From Armatimonadetes bacterium Uphvl-Ar2 (GTDB lineage: Bacteria; Armatimonadota; Fimbriimonadia; Fimbriimonadales; Fimbriimonadaceae): a DNA stretch of 64,000 nucleotides. Shown here in pieces: positions 16,861 through 39,692 of this stretch. Position 1 is the first letter of the stretch; each line of letters opens with the position of its first letter. Location: NCBI GenBank assembly GCA_002162095.1, contig CP021424.1, positions 1,426,001 to 1,490,000 of the forward strand, read 5' to 3'. Below the pieces are notes generated by a model that was not told the DNA's origin, did not search any database, and saw nothing but the letters and a program-made list of their open reading frames with translations. Position numbers and translations under genes: made by a program.

Positions 16861-17844
16861 TCAAGCGCCGTGCGGGACATGAATCTGATTGGTGCGGCTG
16901 CAAGAGTAAGTCTGGGCTTGGCCGGTGCGAGCATCGATCCGGGCCGAGCACCACATCTCTTGCTCATACGAAGTGCCATGCACGATGAAGACGGGAGTGA
17001 GACGACTAAATCGGGAGACTCGGTCGTCGGATTTCAAGTCAAGCTTGTAGCTTGCATACAACTTGATTCTCTCCTTTTGGATCGTCACTCGCTCGCTGCG
17101 CCAAAGGTTTATGCAGATTTCCTTCACCTTGTCTTCCGGAAGGATGGGATCCCACGGCCCGGGCGGCGGCATCGGGGTTGCCCGGGCCTGAAGGACTTTT
17201 CCCGTCTGCGCATCGACAAGCACATGCCCCATGCGAGCCGTATTCAATCGAAATCTCGGATCGGGATTTAGCTCGGTGAAATTGCCAGAAAAGACTCTTC
17301 GCGGATAGTTGTTGGTGTAATGATAGGAGTCCCTGGATTCGACTAAGTTAAAGCGCCAGAAGAACACATGTTGAGTAGGTACGCCAACAGATTTCAAGTA
17401 ATCGAGCATCACTTGTTTGGCTTCTGAGTCGCTCCGAATGGCGTGGGGTTGGTCTTGCCGGTAGGGTTGATCCTGATAAAAGGACTGACCTAAGGAAAAC
17501 GATTCAAATTGGCCCGTGAAGGCGTGATAGGAAATGGTGGCTTCCGGAGTGTCTAGCCGGACAAAGTGGTTTCGCTCTACGCTTTGCTGCGCGAGGGAGG
17601 GAGACATGCTATTGGCCAGAAGCAGCTCCCGCATTCGCGAACCCCGGTTCGGCGGAATGTTCAAGAGAAGCGGATACTCTCGCACATAGTGGCGGATGAC
17701 CAAGACCAGCGAGGACCCCGCCAAAACGGCCAAGGGCAAGAGGATTCGAAGTCGGTTCGCCCTCCACCATTCTATGGCTCGACTCGACCCACCGGAGCCA
17801 AGGGGAAGGGATTGATCCCTAGTGCTCCGTCTCACTTCTCCCAT
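16861..17844 (-). CDS. Membrane-anchored PepSY-like protein
   Basis: 327 residues with one N-terminal membrane helix (about 32-52, ILLPLAVLAGSSLVLVI) and an extracytoplasmic domain. Two PepSY-like units are visible: RSDSEAKQVMLDYLKSVG ending in VLVDAQTGKVLQ, and PEDKVKEICINLW ending in ARIDARTGQAQTYSC. It is a distant paralog of the proteins at 18603, 33076, 34109 and 35157. PepSY domains often act as protease propeptides or inhibitors; that role is not shown here. It diverges from the DUF4424-like gene and shares its control region. Confidence 0.65.
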   Translation of the reverse strand: MGEVRRSTRDQSLPLGSGGSSRAIEWWRANRLRILLPLAVLAGSSLVLVIRHYVREYPLLLNIPPNRGSRMRELLLANSMSPSLAQQSVERNHFVRLDTPEATISYHAFTGQFESFSLGQSFYQDQPYRQDQPHAIRSDSEAKQVMLDYLKSVGVPTQHVFFWRFNLVESRDSYHYTNNYPRRVFSGNFTELNPDPRFRLNTARMGHVLVDAQTGKVLQARATPMPPPGPWDPILPEDKVKEICINLWRSERVTIQKERIKLYASYKLDLKSDDRVSRFSRLTPVFIVHGTSYEQEMWCSARIDARTGQAQTYSCSRTNQIHVPHGA

Positions 17845-17882: not shown

Positions 17883-18598
17883 ATGTGGATCGGCTTAGCC
17901 TTGGCCCTCAATGACAGCGCGGTGATGGGGGTGGGCGGCACCGTATCGGCCCTGGACACCACCACCCCGGTGCGCATGGTGCGCGAGCGCATCGACATCC
18001 ACATGGGCCAGCGCAAGGTCAATGCCGAGTTCCTCTTCCAGAACACCGCCAACACCCCCACGCGGGTGCTGATGGGGTTCCCGGAAGAAGGCGGCGGCGA
18101 CATCGAGGTGCCCGGCCCCAACCGCAGCACCTGGTTTAAATCGTTCCGCAGCTGGGTGGATGGCGAGCCCGTGGCCGTGCAGCGCCGCCCCTCCGAAGGC
18201 GACGACATGTTCTATAAGCAATGGTGGACCAAGGAGGTCACCTTTGCCGCGCGGCAAGAGCGCACCGTGCGCAACGAATATGTGACCACGCTGGGGGGAG
18301 TGCCACCGGCATCAGCTGGCTGACGTATGTGCTTTCAACCGGGCGGCCCTGGCAGGGCACCATCGGCGAGGCGGTGATTACGGTGGATTTGGCGGGGATT
18401 CCGCGCAACGCTTGGATTGGGGCGCGCCCGGCCAACTACGTGCGCCAGGGCGACAAGCTGGTGTGGGTGAAGCGCAATTTTGAACCCGAAGAGGACGAGG
18501 AAGTGGTGGTGGCGTACTGGGTGCAGGTGAAGGGGTCGCCGATTGTGCGGCCGGACGAACTGCGGCAGCAGTACGGCCCGATTTTCCAGCGGGATTAG
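17883..18598 (+). pseudogene. DUF4424-like secreted protein, frameshifted
   Basis: Two open frames together encode about 238 residues of one protein. The first (17883-18323) runs MWIGLALALNDSAVMG to VTTLGG and continues out of frame. The second frame resumes at SATGISWLTYVLSTG and ends at 18598. Adding one G to the six-G run at 18293-18298 joins them exactly. The N-terminal part (signal-like start, then VRMVRERIDIHMGQRKVNAEF) resembles DUF4424, an extracytoplasmic beta-rich family of unknown role. Either a one-base sequencing error or a real slippage site would explain it. Confidence 0.6.
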
Positions 18599-18602
18599 AT
18601 CG

Positions 18603-19541
18603 ATGAGCAAGCGAGTTTGGTGGATTCTGGGCGGCGTCGTGGTGCTGTCCGCGGGCGTGTACTTTGGTGTCAATGCCATGGCCCCACGCAAGCCGGTTAG
18701 TGCGCATGAAGAGCGCATCAGGGAACTGTTTGCCGCAATTGATGAACCGGCTTCGGACTTCAAGATGTTAGCGCCTAAGGATCAACGGCAATGGGGCATT
18801 GCCAATGACACAACGGTGATGATCCATGATCCAAGCCTGCAGATCACGCAGATCCGGCGATGGCCAGCTTGGCTCAAGCGGAATCCGGAGGCCCCTCCTG
18901 GCCCGGGTGCAGTAGAGAATGCCAAAGAAGCAACAGAAAAGCTCGCCGCCCTCCTCCCCAAACTCGGGCTTGGCGACCTCAAGTACAAGATTCTTACGGC
19001 GCATCGACTCGAGACGCAGCCCTTCTTAGTCACCAAGAATGGGCGTCAGGAATGGGAGGAGCGGAAGGCCAGGCCGCGCTACATGGTGTTTTTTCGAGAG
19101 ACTCACGAGGACCCGCGCTACTATCTCGATGGCTTGCGTGAAGGCCAAGTCGAATACTGCGCAAACTCTGGCGAACTATTGCAGTTCTACATCAACTACC
19201 CGGAGAAGGCCGGCGAGTGGGAATCTATTGTCACCGAAGAACAAGCCGCTCGAAAAGTGCGCGAGGCGTGGAAGTTTTGGCCTGAGGCGGCTTCGGTAGC
19301 TCGCACCACGGTAGATCGGATTTGGATGCATTACTGGACCGACTACAAACTCCGACACGAGACACCAATGTCGGGCGGATACGTGGTGCGGGGCCTGGAT
19401 GCCAAGGGTGACCTCCTGTGCATCGGATTTGTGGTGGGGAAGACCGGAGAAGTGAGCAGACCAGACTGCGGCGACCTTCCCGATTTGTTGAACTGGAGCG
19501 GCGAGATCCGCAGGTACCGACCCACGGAACTAGCCCCCTAG
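18603..19541 (+). CDS. Membrane-anchored PepSY-like protein
   Basis: 312 residues. The N-terminal helix (VWWILGGVVVLSAGVYFGV) is an uncleaved-type anchor. The extracytoplasmic part shares the layout of the other PepSY-like proteins here: FRETHEDPRYYLDGLREGQ, then CANSGELLQFY, then VTEEQAARKVREAWKFWP, and a final VVGKTGEVSRPDC. It starts 4 nt after the DUF4424-like gene and is probably in the same transcript. An intrinsic terminator follows. Confidence 0.65.
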   Translation: MSKRVWWILGGVVVLSAGVYFGVNAMAPRKPVSAHEERIRELFAAIDEPASDFKMLAPKDQRQWGIANDTTVMIHDPSLQITQIRRWPAWLKRNPEAPPGPGAVENAKEATEKLAALLPKLGLGDLKYKILTAHRLETQPFLVTKNGRQEWEERKARPRYMVFFRETHEDPRYYLDGLREGQVEYCANSGELLQFYINYPEKAGEWESIVTEEQAARKVREAWKFWPEAASVARTTVDRIWMHYWTDYKLRHETPMSGGYVVRGLDAKGDLLCIGFVVGKTGEVSRPDCGDLPDLLNWSGEIRRYRPTELAP

Positions 19542-29680: not shown

Positions 29681-30379
29681 ATGAACAAGAGTTGGTTCCT
29701 CCTGAGCCTCGTCACCATCGGCACGACCGCTCAGGCAAACATCATCATTGATGATTTCTCGACGGGCAACTACAGCTACAACACGACAGTGGACACCTAC
29801 ACGTCGCAAACCGGCATCACCGCCATTGCGCCGACCCGCTACGTGGCCCACGACTTTGTCGCCAACCCGAACGCGCGACCGATCCGCACCGAAGTGGCCG
29901 GAGGCAAGCTGTTCATCTCCACGGGTGTCAACGTTAATGCGAAGCTGAACTTCAACTACATGGCCAGCCTCAAGAACTCGGTGCCGGCCCAAGGTTCCGG
30001 CCTGCTCGGTCTGTCGAGCTTCAATGCCGCGAGCCCGGCGATTGACATCAGCAGCGAAAGCGCCTTCAAGTTCGATTACGAGAACAACGACCAGAACAAC
30101 ACGATGATCTACGTGTATGCCTGGAACTCGGACTTCACGGCCTTCAACGCTTCCGCGGGTTACTCGGTGGCCGCGGGCAACGGCAGCCTCACCATCCCCT
30201 ACAGTGCGGTCTTCACCACGGTGAATCCGAACAGCATCGGGATGCTGGGCTTCGGCGTCCTCGCTCCGACGAGCAACGACATCACGCTGACGAGCGTGGC
30301 CGCGGTGCCCGAACCGGCCAGCATGATCGCGCTGGGTGCGGGCTTGCTCGCTCTGGCTCGACGCCGCCGTAGCAAGTAA
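29681..30379 (+). CDS. PEP-CTERM protein, array member 4
   Basis: 232 residues with a signal peptide (MNKSWFLLSLVTIGTTAQA), the IIIDDFSTGNY opening and an STGVNVNAKLNFNYMASL segment parallel to member 3. The tail is AVPEPASMIALGAGLLALA, RRRRSK. It follows member 3 by 18 nt with AAGGAG before the ATG, so members 3 and 4 are an operon. A strong terminator follows, shared with the convergent serine hydrolase gene. Confidence 0.85.
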   Translation: MNKSWFLLSLVTIGTTAQANIIIDDFSTGNYSYNTTVDTYTSQTGITAIAPTRYVAHDFVANPNARPIRTEVAGGKLFISTGVNVNAKLNFNYMASLKNSVPAQGSGLLGLSSFNAASPAIDISSESAFKFDYENNDQNNTMIYVYAWNSDFTAFNASAGYSVAAGNGSLTIPYSAVFTTVNPNSIGMLGFGVLAPTSNDITLTSVAAVPEPASMIALGAGLLALARRRRSK

Positions 30380-32106: not shown

Positions 32107-32188
32107 TGCAATGTGTAATACCGCAGATTTTCAGCCCAGGTTGCCGGGAACGGAGAGAATCTAATCCCGGCCCGGGCTGTGTGCGGCG

Positions 32189-33076
32189 TTATTCTCCTCG
32201 TGTTTGGCTTGCGTTCCAACAATAATGTTGCAAGATCGAGCCATCCCGCGCATCGATTCTGGCCATACACTGCGTCGACTCCTCATTCACAAATCCGGTC
32301 ACGTAGTAGCCCGGAACCAGGCGATCCTCCGGCTTGACCTTCGTGGAGTTTCCGGATCGAATGTACTGTGCCTTGGCCTAAACTTGCCGAGGATCGAAGT
32401 TAGCACCCGAACCGCGCCAAACTTCCTGTGCAATCTCCACGGCCCGTTGTTCCGAAATGGTCTCCCCCCAAGGGGCCGCGGGCGGAATAGCGTTTGAGTT
32501 GTACTTGAGGACAAGCCCCGTCGCAGCATCCATGACAATGTTGCCCTTGCGAAGGCCCGCGGAGACATACCGTTTGTCACTCTTGGATTCCTCGAACCTT
32601 GCTACGAAGATCTTCCGCTCGAAGCCCATTACAACCTGCCGAGAAGCTTCGCCCTCGAGAGTTTGGGATTGGGTGAAGTCATACGCCTCCATTTCAACGC
32701 CTGCCTCTTTCAGGAAGAGGCTCATGGCGGCCTCGGCTTGAGACTCCGACTTCAATTCATGGACACTGCCTGGCTTAAGCGGATGCGAAGCAAAAAAGCT
32801 CGTCGGTCGACTCAATTGGATGAGTTGCCCCGTGTGCTGGTCTAGCCAAATCCGGACCGAGGGTGTTTCGAGCATGACGCCCCCGTTTTTCGTTGTCAGC
32901 AGGTTCGCTTGAGATGGGTCCTCTTTGCTAGCCTGAAGCACTTGCCGCATCCGCGCTTGCGTGTCCACCTGGCCCGTAGCCAGAGAGCTGAGTTGGTCGC
33001 GGTAAATCCAGCCCCCGGCCCCGAGCGCCATCACCCCCACCGCCGCCACCGCAAACAAGGAGGGACGCAGTTTCAT
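32189..33076 (-). pseudogene. PepSY-like paralog 1, interrupted by an in-frame TAG
   Basis: The frame opens at ATG 33076 (GGAG 8 nt upstream). It encodes the same membrane anchor as paralog 2 (MKLRPSLFAVAAVGVMALG), and reads PepSY-like unit 1 and half of unit 2 before TAG at 32378-32380. Without a frame change the homologous C-terminus continues: AKAQYIRSGN, PEDRLVPGYYV, MARIDARDGSILQHYC, ending at TAA 32189. The distance from the upstream TTG to the TAA (33154-32189) is 966 bp, identical to the same span in paralog 2. The stop aligns with an Arg in paralog 2, so a single substitution explains it. A truncated protein of 232 residues could still be made. Confidence 0.75.
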
Positions 33077-33316
33077 CAGTTCAACTCCAAAGGGTTCTCC
33101 AGGGTTGGCCTGCCGCACCCATCGGCCGCCAAGCTTCACCTTCTGACTTCCCAACCTACCAACAAGTTACGGGAGTTGTCAAGCCGCGTCTCCTTGCACG
33201 TGCTGTAAACAGAAACCAGCCTTACTCTCCGCGCATGCGGCTGGGAATATGGCAGGAGTTCTGCATCACCTTTCCGCTTCGCCCATCAATGATCGCAAAG
33301 CAGTGCCACGAATCTG
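32931..33316. repeat. 386-bp direct repeat, copy A
   Basis: Nearly identical to 33964-34349 (offset exactly 1033 bp, about ten differences). It covers the 5' part of paralog 1, its promoter, the intergenic space and the 3' end of paralog 2. Confidence 0.9.
33153..33182 (-). promoter_or_regulatory. Promoter TTGACA-N18-TAGGTT of paralog 1
   Basis: The -35 TTGACA (33177-33182) and -10 TAGGTT (33153-33158) are on the minus strand. The predicted leader is about 70 nt and includes the GGAG site for ATG 33076. The same TTGACAACyCCCGTAA block occurs at paralog 2 and upstream of 36365. Confidence 0.65.
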
Positions 33317-34109
33317 CATCCGATGAAGCTCCAAGCACGTACCCTGGAATCAGGCGATCTTCAGGAAGGATTTTCTTGCTACTTCCGGTGCTCACATACT
33401 TCGCATGAATCCGCACCATTGACGGCTCAATATTAGCTCCCGATTGCTGCCAAACATCCAGCGCAATCTCCTTTGCCCTTGCTTCATCGATATTGAGTTC
33501 CCAAGGTGCTGCCGGTGGAAGGATGATGGAACTGAACCGAAGAATTAGTCCCGTTTGGCCATCCACGACAATCGACCCACTTCGACTCGCAGTCGCCTCG
33601 AATCGCGGATCACTCTTTCGTTCGACAAACCGGGCAGTGTAAATCTTCCTCACATGGCCCGATGCGGCCTGTGTGGCCTCTTCACCTTCGAGAGTTTTGA
33701 ACCCCTCGAACTCGTAGGATTCCATTTCTACCCCCGCATCCCGGATGAAGGCGGCCATCACCGCCTTCGCATCTCCTTCAGAACGGACAACGTGGGGCCC
33801 CTCAGGCTTGTAGGGATAATTGGCATAGAAGTCTCTCGATCGACTAACTGAAACCAATTGGCCAGTCTGTTCATCCAAGCGAACGCTGACAGAGCCGTTT
33901 CCTATCTGGATACTCCCGTTGAAGGTCCGGGCCTGCGATGCCAGATTGGGATCCAACTGGAAGGCCTGAAGCACTTGCCGCATCCGCGCTTGCGTGTCCA
34001 CCCGGCCTGTAGCCTGAGAGCTGAGTTGGTCGCGGTAAATCCAGCCCCCGGCCCCGAGCGCCATCACCCCCACCGCCGCCACCGCAAACAAGGAGGGACG
34101 CAGTTTCAT
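33222..34109 (-). CDS. PepSY-like paralog 2 (mosaic)
   Basis: 295 residues from ATG 34109 (GGAG upstream). A membrane anchor (residues 1-25) identical to paralog 1 is followed by two PepSY-like units: VRSEGDAKAVMAAFIRDAG to VVDGQTGLILRFSS, and DEARAKEIALDVWQQSG to AIIDGRSGKVMQNSC. From about residue 60 onward it matches paralog 3 far better than paralog 1, while its promoter and anchor match paralog 1. The gene therefore looks like a chimera made by recombination between neighbours. It is an extracytoplasmic protein of unknown function. Confidence 0.75.
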   Translation of the reverse strand: MKLRPSLFAVAAVGVMALGAGGWIYRDQLSSQATGRVDTQARMRQVLQAFQLDPNLASQARTFNGSIQIGNGSVSVRLDEQTGQLVSVSRSRDFYANYPYKPEGPHVVRSEGDAKAVMAAFIRDAGVEMESYEFEGFKTLEGEEATQAASGHVRKIYTARFVERKSDPRFEATASRSGSIVVDGQTGLILRFSSIILPPAAPWELNIDEARAKEIALDVWQQSGANIEPSMVRIHAKYVSTGSSKKILPEDRLIPGYVLGASSDADSWHCFAIIDGRSGKVMQNSCHIPSRMRGE

Positions 34110-34349
34110 CAGTTCAACTCCAAAGGGTTCTCCAGGGTTGGCCTGCCGCACCCATCGGCCGCCAAGCTTCACCTTCTGACTTCCCAACCTACCAACAAGT
34201 TACGGGGGTTGTCAAGCCGCGTCTCCTTGCACGTGCTGTAAACAGAAACCAGCCTTACTCCCCACGCATGCGGCTGGGGATTTGGCAGGAGTTCTGCATC
34301 ACTTTGCCGCTTCGCCCATCAATGATCGCAAAGCAGTGCCACGAATCTG
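33964..34349. repeat. 386-bp direct repeat, copy B
   Basis: Second copy of the block at 32931-33316. It covers the 5' part of paralog 2, its promoter and the 3' end of paralog 3. Confidence 0.9.
34186..34215 (-). promoter_or_regulatory. Promoter TTGACA-N18-TAGGTT of paralog 2
   Basis: Identical in layout to the promoter at 33153-33182; -35 at 34210-34215 and -10 at 34186-34191. Confidence 0.65.
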
Positions 34350-35157
34350 GACCAGCAGAAGCCCCGAGAACGTACCCCGGGATCAAACGATCTTCGGGCT
34401 TGATTATCAGAGGGTTTCCGGTGCGCACATACTTCGCTCTGATGTTCACTTGAGAGCCTTCAATACTCGCCCCCGATCCGCGCCAAGCATCCAAGGCTAT
34501 CTCCTTTGCCCTAGCTTCACTAATATTGAGTTGCCAGGGATCTGCCGCGGGCATGATAACCGAGTTGAACGAGAGTAATTTTCCAGTTTGCCCGTCAACC
34601 ACCATGAATCCGCTCCGACTTGTAGTGGCCTCAAAGCGAGGGTCACTTTTTCGTTCAACGAAACGGGCGGTGTAGACTTTCCGCGCCTGGCCGTAAGCGG
34701 CCTGGGTGGCTTCTTCACCTTCGAGAGTTTTGAACCCTTCGAACTCGTAGGATTCCATTTCTACTCCCGCATCCCGGATGAAGGCGGCCATCACCGCCTT
34801 CGCTTGTGCCTCAGAACGGACAACGTGGGAGCCATCGGGTTTGTACGGCTTTTCGGCATAAAATCCTCGTGATCGACCAATCGATACCAATTGTCCTGAG
34901 TGTTCGTCCACGTGAGCCTCAACGACCTCATTGCCAATCTGGAGACCACCGTTGACAGACTGGGCCTGCGCAGCTAAGTCTGGATTAACTTCAAATGCTT
35001 GAAGCACCCGTCTCAAACTCCCCTCACTGCCACCACCCGAAAGTGTTCGAAGACTAAGGCCCTCCTTGAAAAAATAGGGACTTATCAAGCTCCCTAGGAT
35101 AAGAACTGCGACGGCAGAAAGTGCTACTTTCTGACCTAGTTTGAGATTTGTATGCAT
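34255..35157 (-). CDS. PepSY-like paralog 3, coupled to the putative peptidase gene
   Basis: 300 residues from ATG 35157, which overlaps the stop of the upstream gene (TAATG). A membrane anchor (VALSAVAVLILGSLISPYFF) differs from paralogs 1 and 2, but the two PepSY-like units are nearly those of paralog 2 (SEAQAKAVMAAFIRDAG; SEARAKEIALDAWRGSG; AIIDGRSGKVMQNSC). Coupling to a gene with caspase-like motifs suggests it may bind or restrain that peptidase, as PepSY domains do in some protease precursors. This is inference. Confidence 0.75.
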   Translation of the reverse strand: MHTNLKLGQKVALSAVAVLILGSLISPYFFKEGLSLRTLSGGGSEGSLRRVLQAFEVNPDLAAQAQSVNGGLQIGNEVVEAHVDEHSGQLVSIGRSRGFYAEKPYKPDGSHVVRSEAQAKAVMAAFIRDAGVEMESYEFEGFKTLEGEEATQAAYGQARKVYTARFVERKSDPRFEATTSRSGFMVVDGQTGKLLSFNSVIMPAADPWQLNISEARAKEIALDAWRGSGASIEGSQVNIRAKYVRTGNPLIIKPEDRLIPGYVLGASAGPDSWHCFAIIDGRSGKVMQNSCQIPSRMRGE

Positions 35158-36365
35158 TAGCGCCACCATTGACTGGGATCGCCCAAGTAGACTGACTTGC
35201 CTTTTGCCTGGAGATCACCGAAAACACGCATATCCGCTATGCCAATGGTGACCGATTTGTCCATTGTGGCCGGTCTAGTCTTGTTTATTTCCGGCACCCA
35301 AGTATTGTATACCGCGATTGCGTCTAGCCTAGCCGCATGAACCGTCTTTTTGCTCTCCAAAAGGCTTTGCCAGAATACAAGCTCAGCCAGACGAGATTCA
35401 GGGAAGAAGGCTGATGGCTCGAAGCTCACGACTGCCTCGTTCGCATCTCCAAACATCGGATTCGGGTTATAACGAGTACCGTGCGGCCAAGTCAGACCGT
35501 TCTTGAACGCATTGGTAGTGCCGGTATGGCACGAATTCACGAAGCCGATCGTAAGCACTGGCTCACCGCTGTTATAAGGTGGCAAAGAGTCATTGCTGGG
35601 GGTAGGTCCCTCGCCGATCGCCACTATTCTTGCTGCCTCCGCCGAGTAGACAGGGGCGTGGGTCTTAAGTGCATAGAAACGCCATGCCTCACCGATGGGA
35701 TCATCGCCATGATCGGGAATGTGATTGTTGTCTGTAATCCTTGCCCCGGGAAAGTTTGCCGATCCATTTGAACCATGCGTCTGTACCGAGAAGATTGTTG
35801 ACATCATGACATCGTTCCGCAGATCAGTCTTCGTCCAAGTGTTATCGAAATGAGCAGAGGTCTGGTATTGGGCGCCGGTGTGGACATTCTGCATCTGAAT
35901 ATGCTCAGGGTGCGGACCCGTGCCGCCCGATAGGAAGTCTTTTTGGACCAGCATGCGTGATCGATTGATTACCGGCCGGGTTGGGGCAATGCTTTCAAAA
36001 ATGCCGTCAGATGCTCAAACTTTAACCCGGATGTCTAAAGCAGTGCCATGGGGGAAGTGCGTTGAATCGAAAACGACCTCCGAACTGACACTAAATAGAA
36101 ACGGACCCACAGGGCCCCTGTGCCAGTGTCGAGTAAGTTGACCGCCAATCCGAATTTCATACTTATAGATGGTCGGTTCGTAGAGCATGGGGTTGTCCGG
36201 GTCCGCCTCTGAAGAGACAATGAACCCAAACTTGCAATTCGTACCGCTCCAGTACTCAGGCATTTCGCTAATGCCTCCAGAGGAAATGTGAATGTCCCCG
36301 GTCACGCTTCCTAGCGAGAGGGCAGGGAGCGCACTTGCGAGAAGGAATGCCCCGACAAGCTTCAT
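35157..36365 (-). pseudogene. Putative secreted caspase-like (clan CD) protein, interrupted by an in-frame TGA
   Basis: One continuous frame of 402 codons is broken only by TGA at 36015-36017. The N-terminal part has a signal peptide (MKLVGAFLLASALPALSLGS) and a beta-sandwich-like domain ending DIRVKV. After the stop the frame continues ASDGIFESIAPTRP. The C-terminal part contains IFSVQTHGSNG and, about 80 residues on, IGFVNSCHTG, the hydrophobic-strand-HG and hydrophobic-strand-C pattern of caspase-like peptidases. AVVSFEPSAFFPESRLAELVFW and ESKKTVHAARLDA follow, as in that fold. A Trp codon (TGG) would restore it. The ATG at 35954 has no obvious ribosome binding site. Confidence 0.55.
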
Positions 36366-36372
36366 GTAACGG

Positions 36373-36402
36373 ATATTACCTTGCCATTACGGGGGTTGTC
36401 AA
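36373..36402 (-). promoter_or_regulatory. Promoter TTGACA-N18-TAATAT
   Basis: -35 TTGACA (36397-36402) and -10 TAATAT (36373-36378), 7 nt before ATG 36365. It carries the same TTGACAACCCCCGTAA block as paralogs 1 and 2, so the four genes may share control. Confidence 0.65.
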
Positions 36403-36473
36403 GAGTGCTTTTATGCGTATTTTTCGCAAATGTTTACTCCTACCCGCCCCGGAGCCCCGCGCCCCCGGCGCGT

Positions 36474-37367: not shown

Positions 37368-38021
37368 TTAGTGACTGTGGCCTAAGTCGAGGAACTTGCG
37401 TTCCGGATTGTGGCGACCCGGGAAGGGGAAGCCGACCAGCGTCTGCGAGAACTTGAAGTAGCGGGAACTTGTGTCGGCGTGGCCGTAGTTGGCACCTTCC
37501 GTAAACCGCTTCTGGTCAATGCGCTCGCTGAACCAGTTTTCGCCGTCTTCTTCGTACAGCGATTCATCGTCCCAGCTGGTGCCGTCCTCCGGCCACGGGT
37601 GGTAGTCGGTGTCTTCCACGCCCTTGGCGCGCGGGGCCAGGGCGATCTGCTCGCTCGGATACTCGAACGAGGTGAGGCTCGCCCCGTGGGCAAACAGACC
37701 GTTGATCAGGTAGTCCGTGGGCGGCTCATCATCTTCGGCCCGGTAGGCGGGCGTGCGGAAGACTTGGCGGTTCTTGACGTAGGGGTAGAGCGGGTCGAAC
37801 CAGTCGTAGCCGGTCTCTTCGTCCTTCACCACGCTGTTGTCGTCCCAGTCGGCGGCGTAAATCTGCAAGGCAATGCCGATCTGCTTAATGTTGCTGAGGT
37901 CGGCCGTCTTCTTGGCGGCTTCTTTGGCCCGCGCAAAGACCGGGAAAAGGATGGCGGCCAAGATCGCGATGATGGCGATGACCACCAACAGCTCGATCAA
38001 GGTAAAGCCCCTTCGATACAT
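37368..38021 (-). CDS. Type IV pilin-like protein (DUF1559-type)
   Basis: 217 residues starting [19 protein letters not shown], with the prepilin peptidase site after Gly5. [18 protein letters not shown] is the helix continuation typical of Armatimonadota and Planctomycetota pseudopilins, and the C-terminal [12 protein letters not shown] matches the H-D motif of this group. The soluble domain is very acidic. The start at 38021 is fixed by CATACT 6 nt upstream; the longer open frame is not coding. It shares its upstream region with the pilin gene at 39655. Confidence 0.85.
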
Positions 38022-38187: not shown

Positions 38188-38913
38188 TTAAGCCTTGCGT
38201 CGGCGTCGGAGGGCGAGCAGCGCCGCCCCGCCCAGGGTGAGCATGGTCGCCGGTTCCGGCACGGCCGTCTGCACACCGAAGTAGTAGGTGTATTCATCGC
38301 TGTAGATGCGCTGGCCGTTCAGCACCGCCGAGGCCTTGAACGTGAGCTCATAGATCCCGGTCTGCGTGAACACGAAGGAGCCGTGCTCGTGGCCGCCCAC
38401 CGTCGAGATGAACTTATCCGTGGCGTCAATGCCGTTGGCCGAAGCGAACCATTCCGTCGGCGAGCTACCCGAACCCTGGAAGAAGGAGACATGGCCCGGG
38501 CCGGTGAAGCTCAGGAACTGGACTTCCACCCACTCGGCCGAGATCGGATCGCGGCGCGGGTCGGTGTTTGTGAAGGAATCGAACGTACCCGGGGCAATCT
38601 CTTCGAATCCGAAGCCCAGCCAGGGGATGCCGCTGACGTTGCTTTGGTAGTTGCGCCAAATCGGGGCTCCCGCGCCCACGCCAATGAAGTCGTAGGCAGA
38701 ACCGGCCGGGCGAGTGGCGGCCGAGGCCGGACCGTAGAACAAGTAAGCCTCGGTGGGCTCGAACTCTTCTTCGGTGTCGTGAATGTGGATGTGCGGATCC
38801 CAGACGCCGGCATCGTAACCTAATCCAAGGTCGATGTGGCCTTCCGAGACCTGAGTCCAGGCGAAGGCCGGAGCGGCGAGAGTTGCGAGGGCGAGTATAG
38901 CAAGGGTTCTCAT
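38188..38913 (-). CDS. PEP-CTERM protein with choice-of-anchor M-like domain
   Basis: 241 residues with a signal peptide ([18 protein letters not shown]). [21 protein letters not shown] is the GHxDxG...W.xHxH opening of the surface-anchored 'choice-of-anchor M' family, and [19 protein letters not shown] matches its second conserved part. The tail is [19 protein letters not shown] plus RRRRKA. The several His residues could bind metal. It lies 25 nt after a pilin-like gene in the same direction, so they are probably co-transcribed and both reach the cell surface. Confidence 0.82.
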
Positions 38914-38938: not shown

Positions 38939-39655
38939 TCAGTCTTCGGGGGGCTTGGCGAAGTCGAAACCCTGCAGAGCCCAGGCACGAATTTGCTTCG
39001 CGGGCAGGCTCTTGACATGGGTGTCAGCGTAAACGTAGTTGGCGCTCCCCTGGGTGGGGTCGCTTTGTGTGCGGAAGAAGGCTCCTGGCTGGATCTCCTG
39101 GATGATGCGTCGCCACCGGAGTTCGGGGTTGGTGGTCTGGAACCAGTAGTACGAGTGCACGTGGTCGTCGTAAACGCTGGGGTTCTTTGAGAACGCCACG
39201 AGCCAGAAGAGCATCGTGTCGGTGGGGCGCGGCAGATTGTCCAGGGAGCGCGTCATCCCCGGCACGATTTCGATCGGGTCGAGATTGTCCGTCAGGTCCG
39301 AGAGGTAGCCGTTGATGACGTAACTGGTGCCGCCCAGGCGGGTGCGTCGCGGCCCATTGGGGTCGGCAGGGGAGACGCGGATCTCGTCCACCTTGCCGGT
39401 GTACGAAAGCAGGTTGTAAACCCACGCGCGCTGGGCGTTGCCGCCGGAGGAGTGCATGCTGGAGGGCATGCCGCCATCGTTGTCGATCGCATACAGGTTG
39501 ATGGCGATCGCAATCTGACGCATGTTGGATGCGTCCATGGTTTTCTTGCCGGCTTCCTTGGCGCGCGCAAAGACCGGGAACAGAATCGCCGCCAAAATCG
39601 CGATGATCGCGATGACGACCAGGAGTTCAATTAGGGTAAAGCCCCTCCGGTACAT
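38939..39655 (-). CDS. Type IV pilin-like protein (DUF1559-type)
   Basis: 238 residues, starting [19 protein letters not shown] with cleavage after Gly5. AKEAGKKTMDASNMRQIA continues the helix, and YADTHVKSLPAKQIR near the end carries the usual C-terminal Asp-x-His motif. The start is fixed by CATACT 6 nt before ATG 39655. It is the first gene of an operon with the choice-of-anchor M protein. Confidence 0.85.
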   Translation of the reverse strand: MYRRGFTLIELLVVIAIIAILAAILFPVFARAKEAGKKTMDASNMRQIAIAINLYAIDNDGGMPSSMHSSGGNAQRAWVYNLLSYTGKVDEIRVSPADPNGPRRTRLGGTSYVINGYLSDLTDNLDPIEIVPGMTRSLDNLPRPTDTMLFWLVAFSKNPSVYDDHVHSYYWFQTTNPELRWRRIIQEIQPGAFFRTQSDPTQGSANYVYADTHVKSLPAKQIRAWALQGFDFAKPPED

Positions 39656-39661
39656 ACAAAG

Positions 39662-39667
39662 AGTATG
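39662..39667 (-). promoter_or_regulatory. -10 CATACT of the pilin/anchor-M operon
   Basis: CATACT, 6 nt, ATG 39655. It lies inside the same CTTCAAGTGCATACT block as at 38028, with TTGCAA about 19 bp upstream. Confidence 0.5.
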
Positions 39668-39692
39668 CACTTGAAGGGTCTAAGTATTGCAA

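What the first reader, a model, noticed from the sequence alone, without database searches (positions are those of the whole stretch)
34255..36402. Putative secreted caspase-like protein coupled to a PepSY-like membrane protein
The C-terminal part of the 35157-36365 gene has IFSVQTHGSNG and IGFVNSCHTG about 80 residues apart, then a strand-helix pattern (AVVSFEPSAFF, LAELVFWQSLL, KKTVHAARLDA) like clan CD peptidases (caspase/C25/CHAT type). It is preceded by a signal peptide and a beta-sandwich domain. TAATG couples it to a PepSY-like membrane-anchored protein, and PepSY domains often restrain proteases. Two further paralogs with the same promoter block follow. This could be a peptidase/inhibitor module not previously described.
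Basis: inference. Interest (0 to 1): 0.6.

Follow-up and report, generated by a model that had tools for sequence, protein, structure and literature searches.

The report
Secreted caspase-fold protease with inhibitor-like partner
The window holds a probably disabled copy of a two-gene unit, a secreted caspase-fold enzyme followed directly by a membrane-anchored partner of the kind that restrains enzymes, and intact copies of this unnamed pair occur, often several per genome, across the bacterial phylum Armatimonadota.

Summary
The finding is real and larger than reported. The 35157-36365 gene (minus strand) belongs to an unnamed secreted family: signal peptide, beta-sandwich, then a clan CD (caspase/gingipain/CHAT fold) domain. 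It has no Pfam hit. The catalytic-type His and Cys are kept in 30 of 30 near-full-length members. The family profile aligns with CHAT at both residues, and nearly all the best structural matches of an AlphaFold2 model are clan CD. The downstream gene is an exported PepSY protein whose modelled relative has three PepSY repeats and best matches YpeB, thought to hold SleB inactive. Fifty-five of 60 family segments have a same-strand downstream ORF, 45 of them partner-profile hits, most often with a 4-nt stop/start overlap. The pair recurs outside the family and co-diverges even among paralogs of one genome. The enzyme occurs in 40 of 291 Armatimonadota genomes. The window copy is probably a pseudogene: in-frame TGA in the enzyme gene, TAG in the third PepSY copy, and no enzyme gene in a congeneric genome that keeps one damaged PepSY gene. 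Best explanation: an extracytoplasmic cysteine protease restrained by its partner. Fold and linkage are shown; protease activity and inhibition are inferred.

The parts
35157..36365 (-). Secreted clan CD (CHAT/gingipain-like) protein gene, interrupted by one in-frame TGA (probable pseudogene)
   Evidence: homologues without the stop; own-genome intact paralog at G000:C1:1662435-1663652
36309..36365 (-). Signal peptide (MKLVGAFLLASALPALSLG)
   Evidence: sequence; N-terminal hydrophobic stretch in 25 of 31 near-full-length family members; inference
36018..36308 (-). N-terminal beta-sandwich domain with family motifs MPxYxSGT and FDSTHF
   Evidence: alignment; strands in AF2 model of homologue; Ig/PKD-like matches at model residues 1-102
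36015..36017 (-). In-frame TGA stop
35160..35978 (-). Clan CD catalytic-type domain
35775..35777 (-). Catalytic-type His (THG), invariant in 30/30
35529..35531 (-). Catalytic-type Cys (SCHTG), invariant in 30/30
34255..35169 (-). Coupled PepSY (YpeB-like) partner with N-terminal hydrophobic membrane anchor; start overlaps enzyme stop (TAATG)
33222..34187 (-). Second PepSY-like copy with its own promoter block
32193..33154 (-). Third PepSY-like copy, interrupted by in-frame TAG at 32378-32380 (approximate 3' end)
36387..36403 (-). Promoter -35 block CTTGACAACCCCCGTAA; TTGACA-18-TAATAT, 7 nt before ATG (possibly leaderless); copies at 34200-34216 and 33167-33183, nowhere else in genome

Best explanation
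It is one decayed copy of a phylum-wide two-gene module. Gene 1 encodes an exported cysteine peptidase of clan CD (nearest by sequence profile to CHAT, by fold to gingipain R and CHAT), made as signal peptide + beta-sandwich + caspase-type domain. Gene 2, translated from an overlapping start codon, encodes an exported PepSY protein (three PepSY repeats, YpeB-like in the modelled relative) held at the membrane in many members by an N-terminal or C-terminal hydrophobic segment. The two are probably made at matched amounts, meet outside the cytoplasm, and the PepSY protein holds the peptidase inactive or positions it until it is released or degraded, as is hypothesised for YpeB and SleB. Shown: gene structure, predicted fold, invariant dyad, coupling, co-divergence. 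Inferred: export, proteolysis, inhibition, membrane tethering. In this genome the window copy is probably non-functional (TGA), while an intact paralog with its own coupled partner exists elsewhere.
For: Clan CD fold: the top 25 VIA-align rows are clan CD or CHAT-type apart from DdvA (8rot, not checked), up to Z 11.4. Strands of the model end directly before the His and the Cys, as stated for clan CD (PMC4357240). Profile alignment to CHAT places THG on THG and DACxxG on SACxTG, E 4.6e-5, against E>0.2 for unrelated controls. His 30/30, Cys 30/30, GD 30/30. Partner: PepSY in 14 of 36 members, best 3.5e-6, and DUF4901 in 5 of 36; hhalign of window partners with other partners 96.8%, E 2.8e-10; Foldseek to YpeB E 4.4e-9 and VIA Z 13.8, with M4/M36-type propeptides (vibriolysin, fungalysin) also listed. 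Linkage: 55 of 60 family segments have a downstream ORF, 45 are partner-profile hits; modal 4-nt overlap; same order outside the family. Co-divergence: Mantel r 0.65, 0/5000; within-genome shuffles 0/5000; 10 paralog pairs of one genome r 0.70, 1/5000. Partners also occur alone, while enzyme genes hardly ever lack one: the asymmetry expected of a restraint.
Against: No activity data. The AF2 model of the enzyme has mean pLDDT 53.8 and Foldseek alone gave no match below E 0.001. No Pfam, NCBIfam or PADLOC family matches the enzyme. Co-divergence can come from duplication as a unit without physical interaction. Some CHAT and other clan CD domains are not general proteases. The window copy itself is interrupted.
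Confidence: 0.6

Rival explanations
1. The PepSY partner is not an inhibitor but a foldase, stabiliser or membrane anchor needed to make or localise the clan CD enzyme, like an intramolecular chaperone propeptide supplied in trans.
For: PepSY-containing propeptides of M4 proteases assist folding as well as inhibit (established knowledge); such propeptides are among the structural matches; the partner is anchored in many members; matched translation.
Against: PepSY partners also exist alone without the enzyme, which a dedicated foldase would not need to; known PepSY propeptides act on metalloproteases, not clan CD.
Confidence: 0.25
2. The clan CD domain is not a degradative protease but a transpeptidase or self-processing enzyme at the cell surface, like PorU (C25) or legumain-type ligases, acting on a few sorted proteins.
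For: Best structural match is C25 gingipain; the fold supports transpeptidation in known relatives (established knowledge). The window also encodes PEP-CTERM-like surface proteins.
Against: Copy number up to about 17 matches per genome and strong divergence do not look like a single housekeeping sortase; no linked cargo signal was found.
Confidence: 0.12
3. The pair is a secreted protease weapon or self-killing factor with the PepSY protein as immunity: multi-copy, fast-diverging, decaying, with orphan immunity genes.
For: Tandem arrays and broken copies in several genomes; cognate co-divergence inside one genome; orphan partners; G001 keeps a lone partner where the window has the module.
Against: No polymorphic-toxin delivery domain recognised, no secretion-system marker, no PADLOC hit; the same pattern fits ordinary surface-protease family expansion.
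Confidence: 0.15
4. The window locus alone is debris: a pseudogene beside unrelated PepSY genes.
For: TGA in the enzyme gene and TAG in the third PepSY copy; enzyme gene absent from G001.
Against: The same order and coupling recur in intact copies across the phylum, so the association is not accidental even if this copy is dead.
Confidence: 0.1

Closest known systems
SleB/YpeB operon of Bacillus spores
   Same: Exported enzyme gene with a PepSY partner from one operon; membrane-anchored partner with PepSY domains thought to hold the enzyme inactive (PMC13393411); the partner model matches the YpeB C-terminal domain best (Z 13.8).
   Different: SleB is a peptidoglycan lytic enzyme, not a clan CD peptidase; Bacillus spores versus Armatimonadota; the anchor lies at either end in different partners.
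CHAT domain peptidases (PF12770)
   Same: Clan CD; profile alignment matches both catalytic residues; second-best structural match is a CHAT protein.
   Different: Below Pfam detection; exported with a beta-sandwich, while CHAT proteins are usually intracellular (established knowledge); PepSY partner.
Gingipain-type peptidases C25 (PF01364)
   Same: Secreted; clan CD; best structural match RgpB (Z 11.4); the C-terminal GD motif aligns.
   Different: Domain order reversed (sandwich before the catalytic domain); no Pfam hit; no cis prodomain seen; sequence profile similarity confined to 55 columns.
PepSY propeptides of M4/M36 metalloproteases
   Same: PepSY-type fold that restrains a protease; fungalysin and vibriolysin propeptides match the partner model.
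   Different: Act in cis on metalloproteases; here a separate gene next to a cysteine-type enzyme.

Membership tests
Clan CD cysteine peptidases | Catalytic His-Gly at the end of a core strand | tested here: met
   His 30/30, following Gly 28/30; strand 158-163 ends before His164 in the model
Clan CD cysteine peptidases | Catalytic Cys at the end of the next core strand | tested here: met
   Cys 30/30; strand 216-221 ends before Cys222
Clan CD cysteine peptidases | Caspase-haemoglobinase fold | tested here: met
   VIA-align Z 11.4 RgpB, 11.0 CHAT, 9.6 separase; caution: model pLDDT 53.8 and Foldseek E above 0.001
Clan CD cysteine peptidases | Peptidase activity | not testable with these tools
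   no assay
CHAT (PF12770) | Pfam gathering score | tested here: not met
   0 of 12 members match; hhalign E 4.6e-5 shows distant relation only
Peptidase C25 (PF01364) | Pfam gathering score | tested here: not met
   no member matches; own genome has no C25 match; hhalign only 55 columns
PepSY (PF03413) | Profile match of the partner | tested here: inconclusive
   Window partner 14.6 bits, cut-off 24; 14 of 36 homologous partners at E<1, best 3.5e-6
PepSY (PF03413) | Helix plus antiparallel sheet repeats as in YpeB | tested here: met
   Model of a homologous partner, pLDDT 75.7, three alpha-beta4 repeats; YpeB Foldseek E 4.4e-9, Z 13.8
YpeB | Partner of SleB in endospore formers | tested here: not met
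   Partner sits next to a clan CD gene, in Armatimonadota

The most novel reading that the evidence does not exclude
A new class of extracytoplasmic caspase-fold enzymes, expanded and diversified in Armatimonadota, each with a private PepSY partner acting as trans-encoded inhibitor or immunity protein, used in conflict between cells or in self-lysis.
Probability: 0.15. Interest if true: 0.8.

Novelty: new variant of a known kind. Interest (0 to 1): 0.62.

Why it matters
Clan CD peptidases and PepSY regulators are each well known, but I found no description of them as a coupled pair, and the enzyme family has no Pfam, NCBIfam or PADLOC model. A pair that recurs across a poorly studied phylum, is multi-copy, and co-diverges inside single genomes would give a trans-acting PepSY partner for a caspase-fold enzyme and a ready test system for how PepSY domains restrain enzymes.

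Tried and rejected
Single-sequence Pfam and PDB sequence searches gave nothing useful. Collection scans: first genome scan none, A1 not conserved enough, A4 found 5 loci in two Fimbriimonadaceae assemblies, viral contigs none. Selenocysteine or recoding of the TGA was rejected: the position is in the linker after the beta-sandwich, does not align with a Cys, relatives have sense codons there, and the neighbouring ftsY gene ends in TGA. An initial reading that the pairing was unique to this genome (the window-specific profile A2 finds PepSY only in the genus) was wrong: a profile of the partners elsewhere is homologous to it. Orphan PepSY genes were checked for other proteases upstream; none was recognised by eye.

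Full report
What is there. The 35157-36365 (-) frame reads 402 residues with one TGA at codon 117. Before the stop lie a signal peptide and a beta-sandwich; after it lies the domain with THG (His197) and SCHTG (Cys279). The gene ends in TAATG, where the PepSY-like gene 34255-35169 begins. Two more PepSY-like copies follow at 33222-34187 and about 32193-33154; the third has an in-frame TAG. The motif CTTGACAACCCCCGTAA stands upstream of the enzyme gene and of the two trailing copies and nowhere else in the genome. Upstream of the enzyme gene it forms TTGACA-18-TAATAT ending 7 nt before the ATG, so the message may be leaderless (inference).

Relatives. A protein search found homologues in 9 of 61 genomes, the window's own included. 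A profile (A1) found the family in 25 of 85 genomes of the same family and 40 of 291 genomes of the phylum, in 26 of 156 genera. One genome has 17 matches, several in tandem arrays. Several genomes hold broken copies. The window's own genome keeps an intact paralog at C1:1662435-1663652 with a coupled partner, plus more distant ones.

Fold and active site. No Pfam, NCBIfam or PADLOC family matches. An AlphaFold2 model of the ACE_ARM1 homologue from six sequences has mean pLDDT 53.8 and pTM 0.56; its strands end at the His and at the Cys. Foldseek gave no match below 0.001, but VIA-align of its candidates ranks RgpB 11.4, SAVED-CHAT 11.0, DdvA 10.8, separases, gingipain K, MALT1 and caspases first. 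A family profile of 30 members aligns with CHAT members of the same phylum at E 4.6e-5 over 140 columns, His on His and Cys on Cys; against C25 only the C-terminal 55 columns align; unrelated controls give E above 0.2. Across 30 near-full-length members the His, the Cys and a late GD are invariant. The clan CD rule that the dyad sits at the ends of strands 3 and 4 is from PMC4357240.

Partner. Fifty-five of 60 family segments have a same-strand ORF of at least 200 aa directly downstream; 45 of these are hits of an iterated partner profile, and most of the remaining full-length cases also have a coupled ORF. The commonest junction is a 4-nt ATGA/GTGA overlap. Outside the window's family the same order holds for most of 17 further segments. 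Pfam PepSY matches 14 of 36 partners, best 3.5e-6, DUF4901 5 of 36. The window partners are homologous to the others (hhalign 96.8%, E 2.8e-10). The partner model (pLDDT 75.7) shows three alpha-beta4 repeats and a C-terminal helix. YpeB C-terminal domain is the best match by Foldseek (4.4e-9) and VIA-align (13.8). Many partners have an N-terminal or C-terminal hydrophobic anchor.

Co-divergence. Trees of 30 enzyme-partner pairs correlate (Mantel r 0.65, 0 of 5000 permutations). Shuffling partners only within genomes also never reached the observed value, and ten pairs of one genome alone give r 0.70 (1 of 5000). Duplication as a unit would also give this.

Asymmetry. Enzyme genes nearly always have a partner, while partner-like genes also occur alone. 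In G001, the same genus and about 96% identical in much of the flanks, window 32166-36443 is replaced by about 1 kb with one PepSY gene, apparently frameshifted, directly behind a similar promoter block and with no enzyme gene. This fits loss of the enzyme with a lingering partner.

Mechanism. By analogy with YpeB, which is expressed from a conserved operon with SleB and is hypothesised to hold it inactive at the membrane (PMC13393411), and with M4-type propeptides, I infer a membrane-held PepSY restraint on an exported clan CD peptidase. Catalysis, export and inhibition are untested.

Novelty. Searches of the open literature for CHAT with PepSY, caspase-like with PepSY, and Armatimonadetes with caspase found no description. 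Most subscription papers are not covered. I rate it a new variant of known kinds.

Noticed in passing
window 29681-30379 (+) and 38188-38913 (-): Two proteins with VPEPASM/VPEPATM...RRRR tails, PEP-CTERM-like surface proteins on either side of the module.
   Followed up: no
window 37368-38020 (-) and 38939-39670 (-): Two prepilin-like proteins sharing an almost identical N-terminus [35 protein letters not shown].
   Followed up: no
window 16861-17844 (-) and 18543-19541 (+): Two further divergent PepSY-like membrane proteins related to the module partner, without a clan CD gene detected nearby.
   Followed up: partly
G000:C1:2291203 and 1709057-1712147 (L070, L071): Distant paralogs of the enzyme in the same genome, each also followed by a closely spaced or overlapping secreted ORF that the partner profile does not detect.
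   Followed up: partly
L052, L065, L074-L077, L079, L086: Broken or fragmentary copies of the enzyme gene in several independent genomes, often with an apparently intact partner.
   Followed up: partly
PDB 8rot_A, residues 798-991 (match to the model of the L112 protein): The anti-sigma factor DdvA matches the clan CD model at Z 10.8, suggesting a clan CD-like domain in a transmembrane anti-sigma factor.
   Followed up: partly
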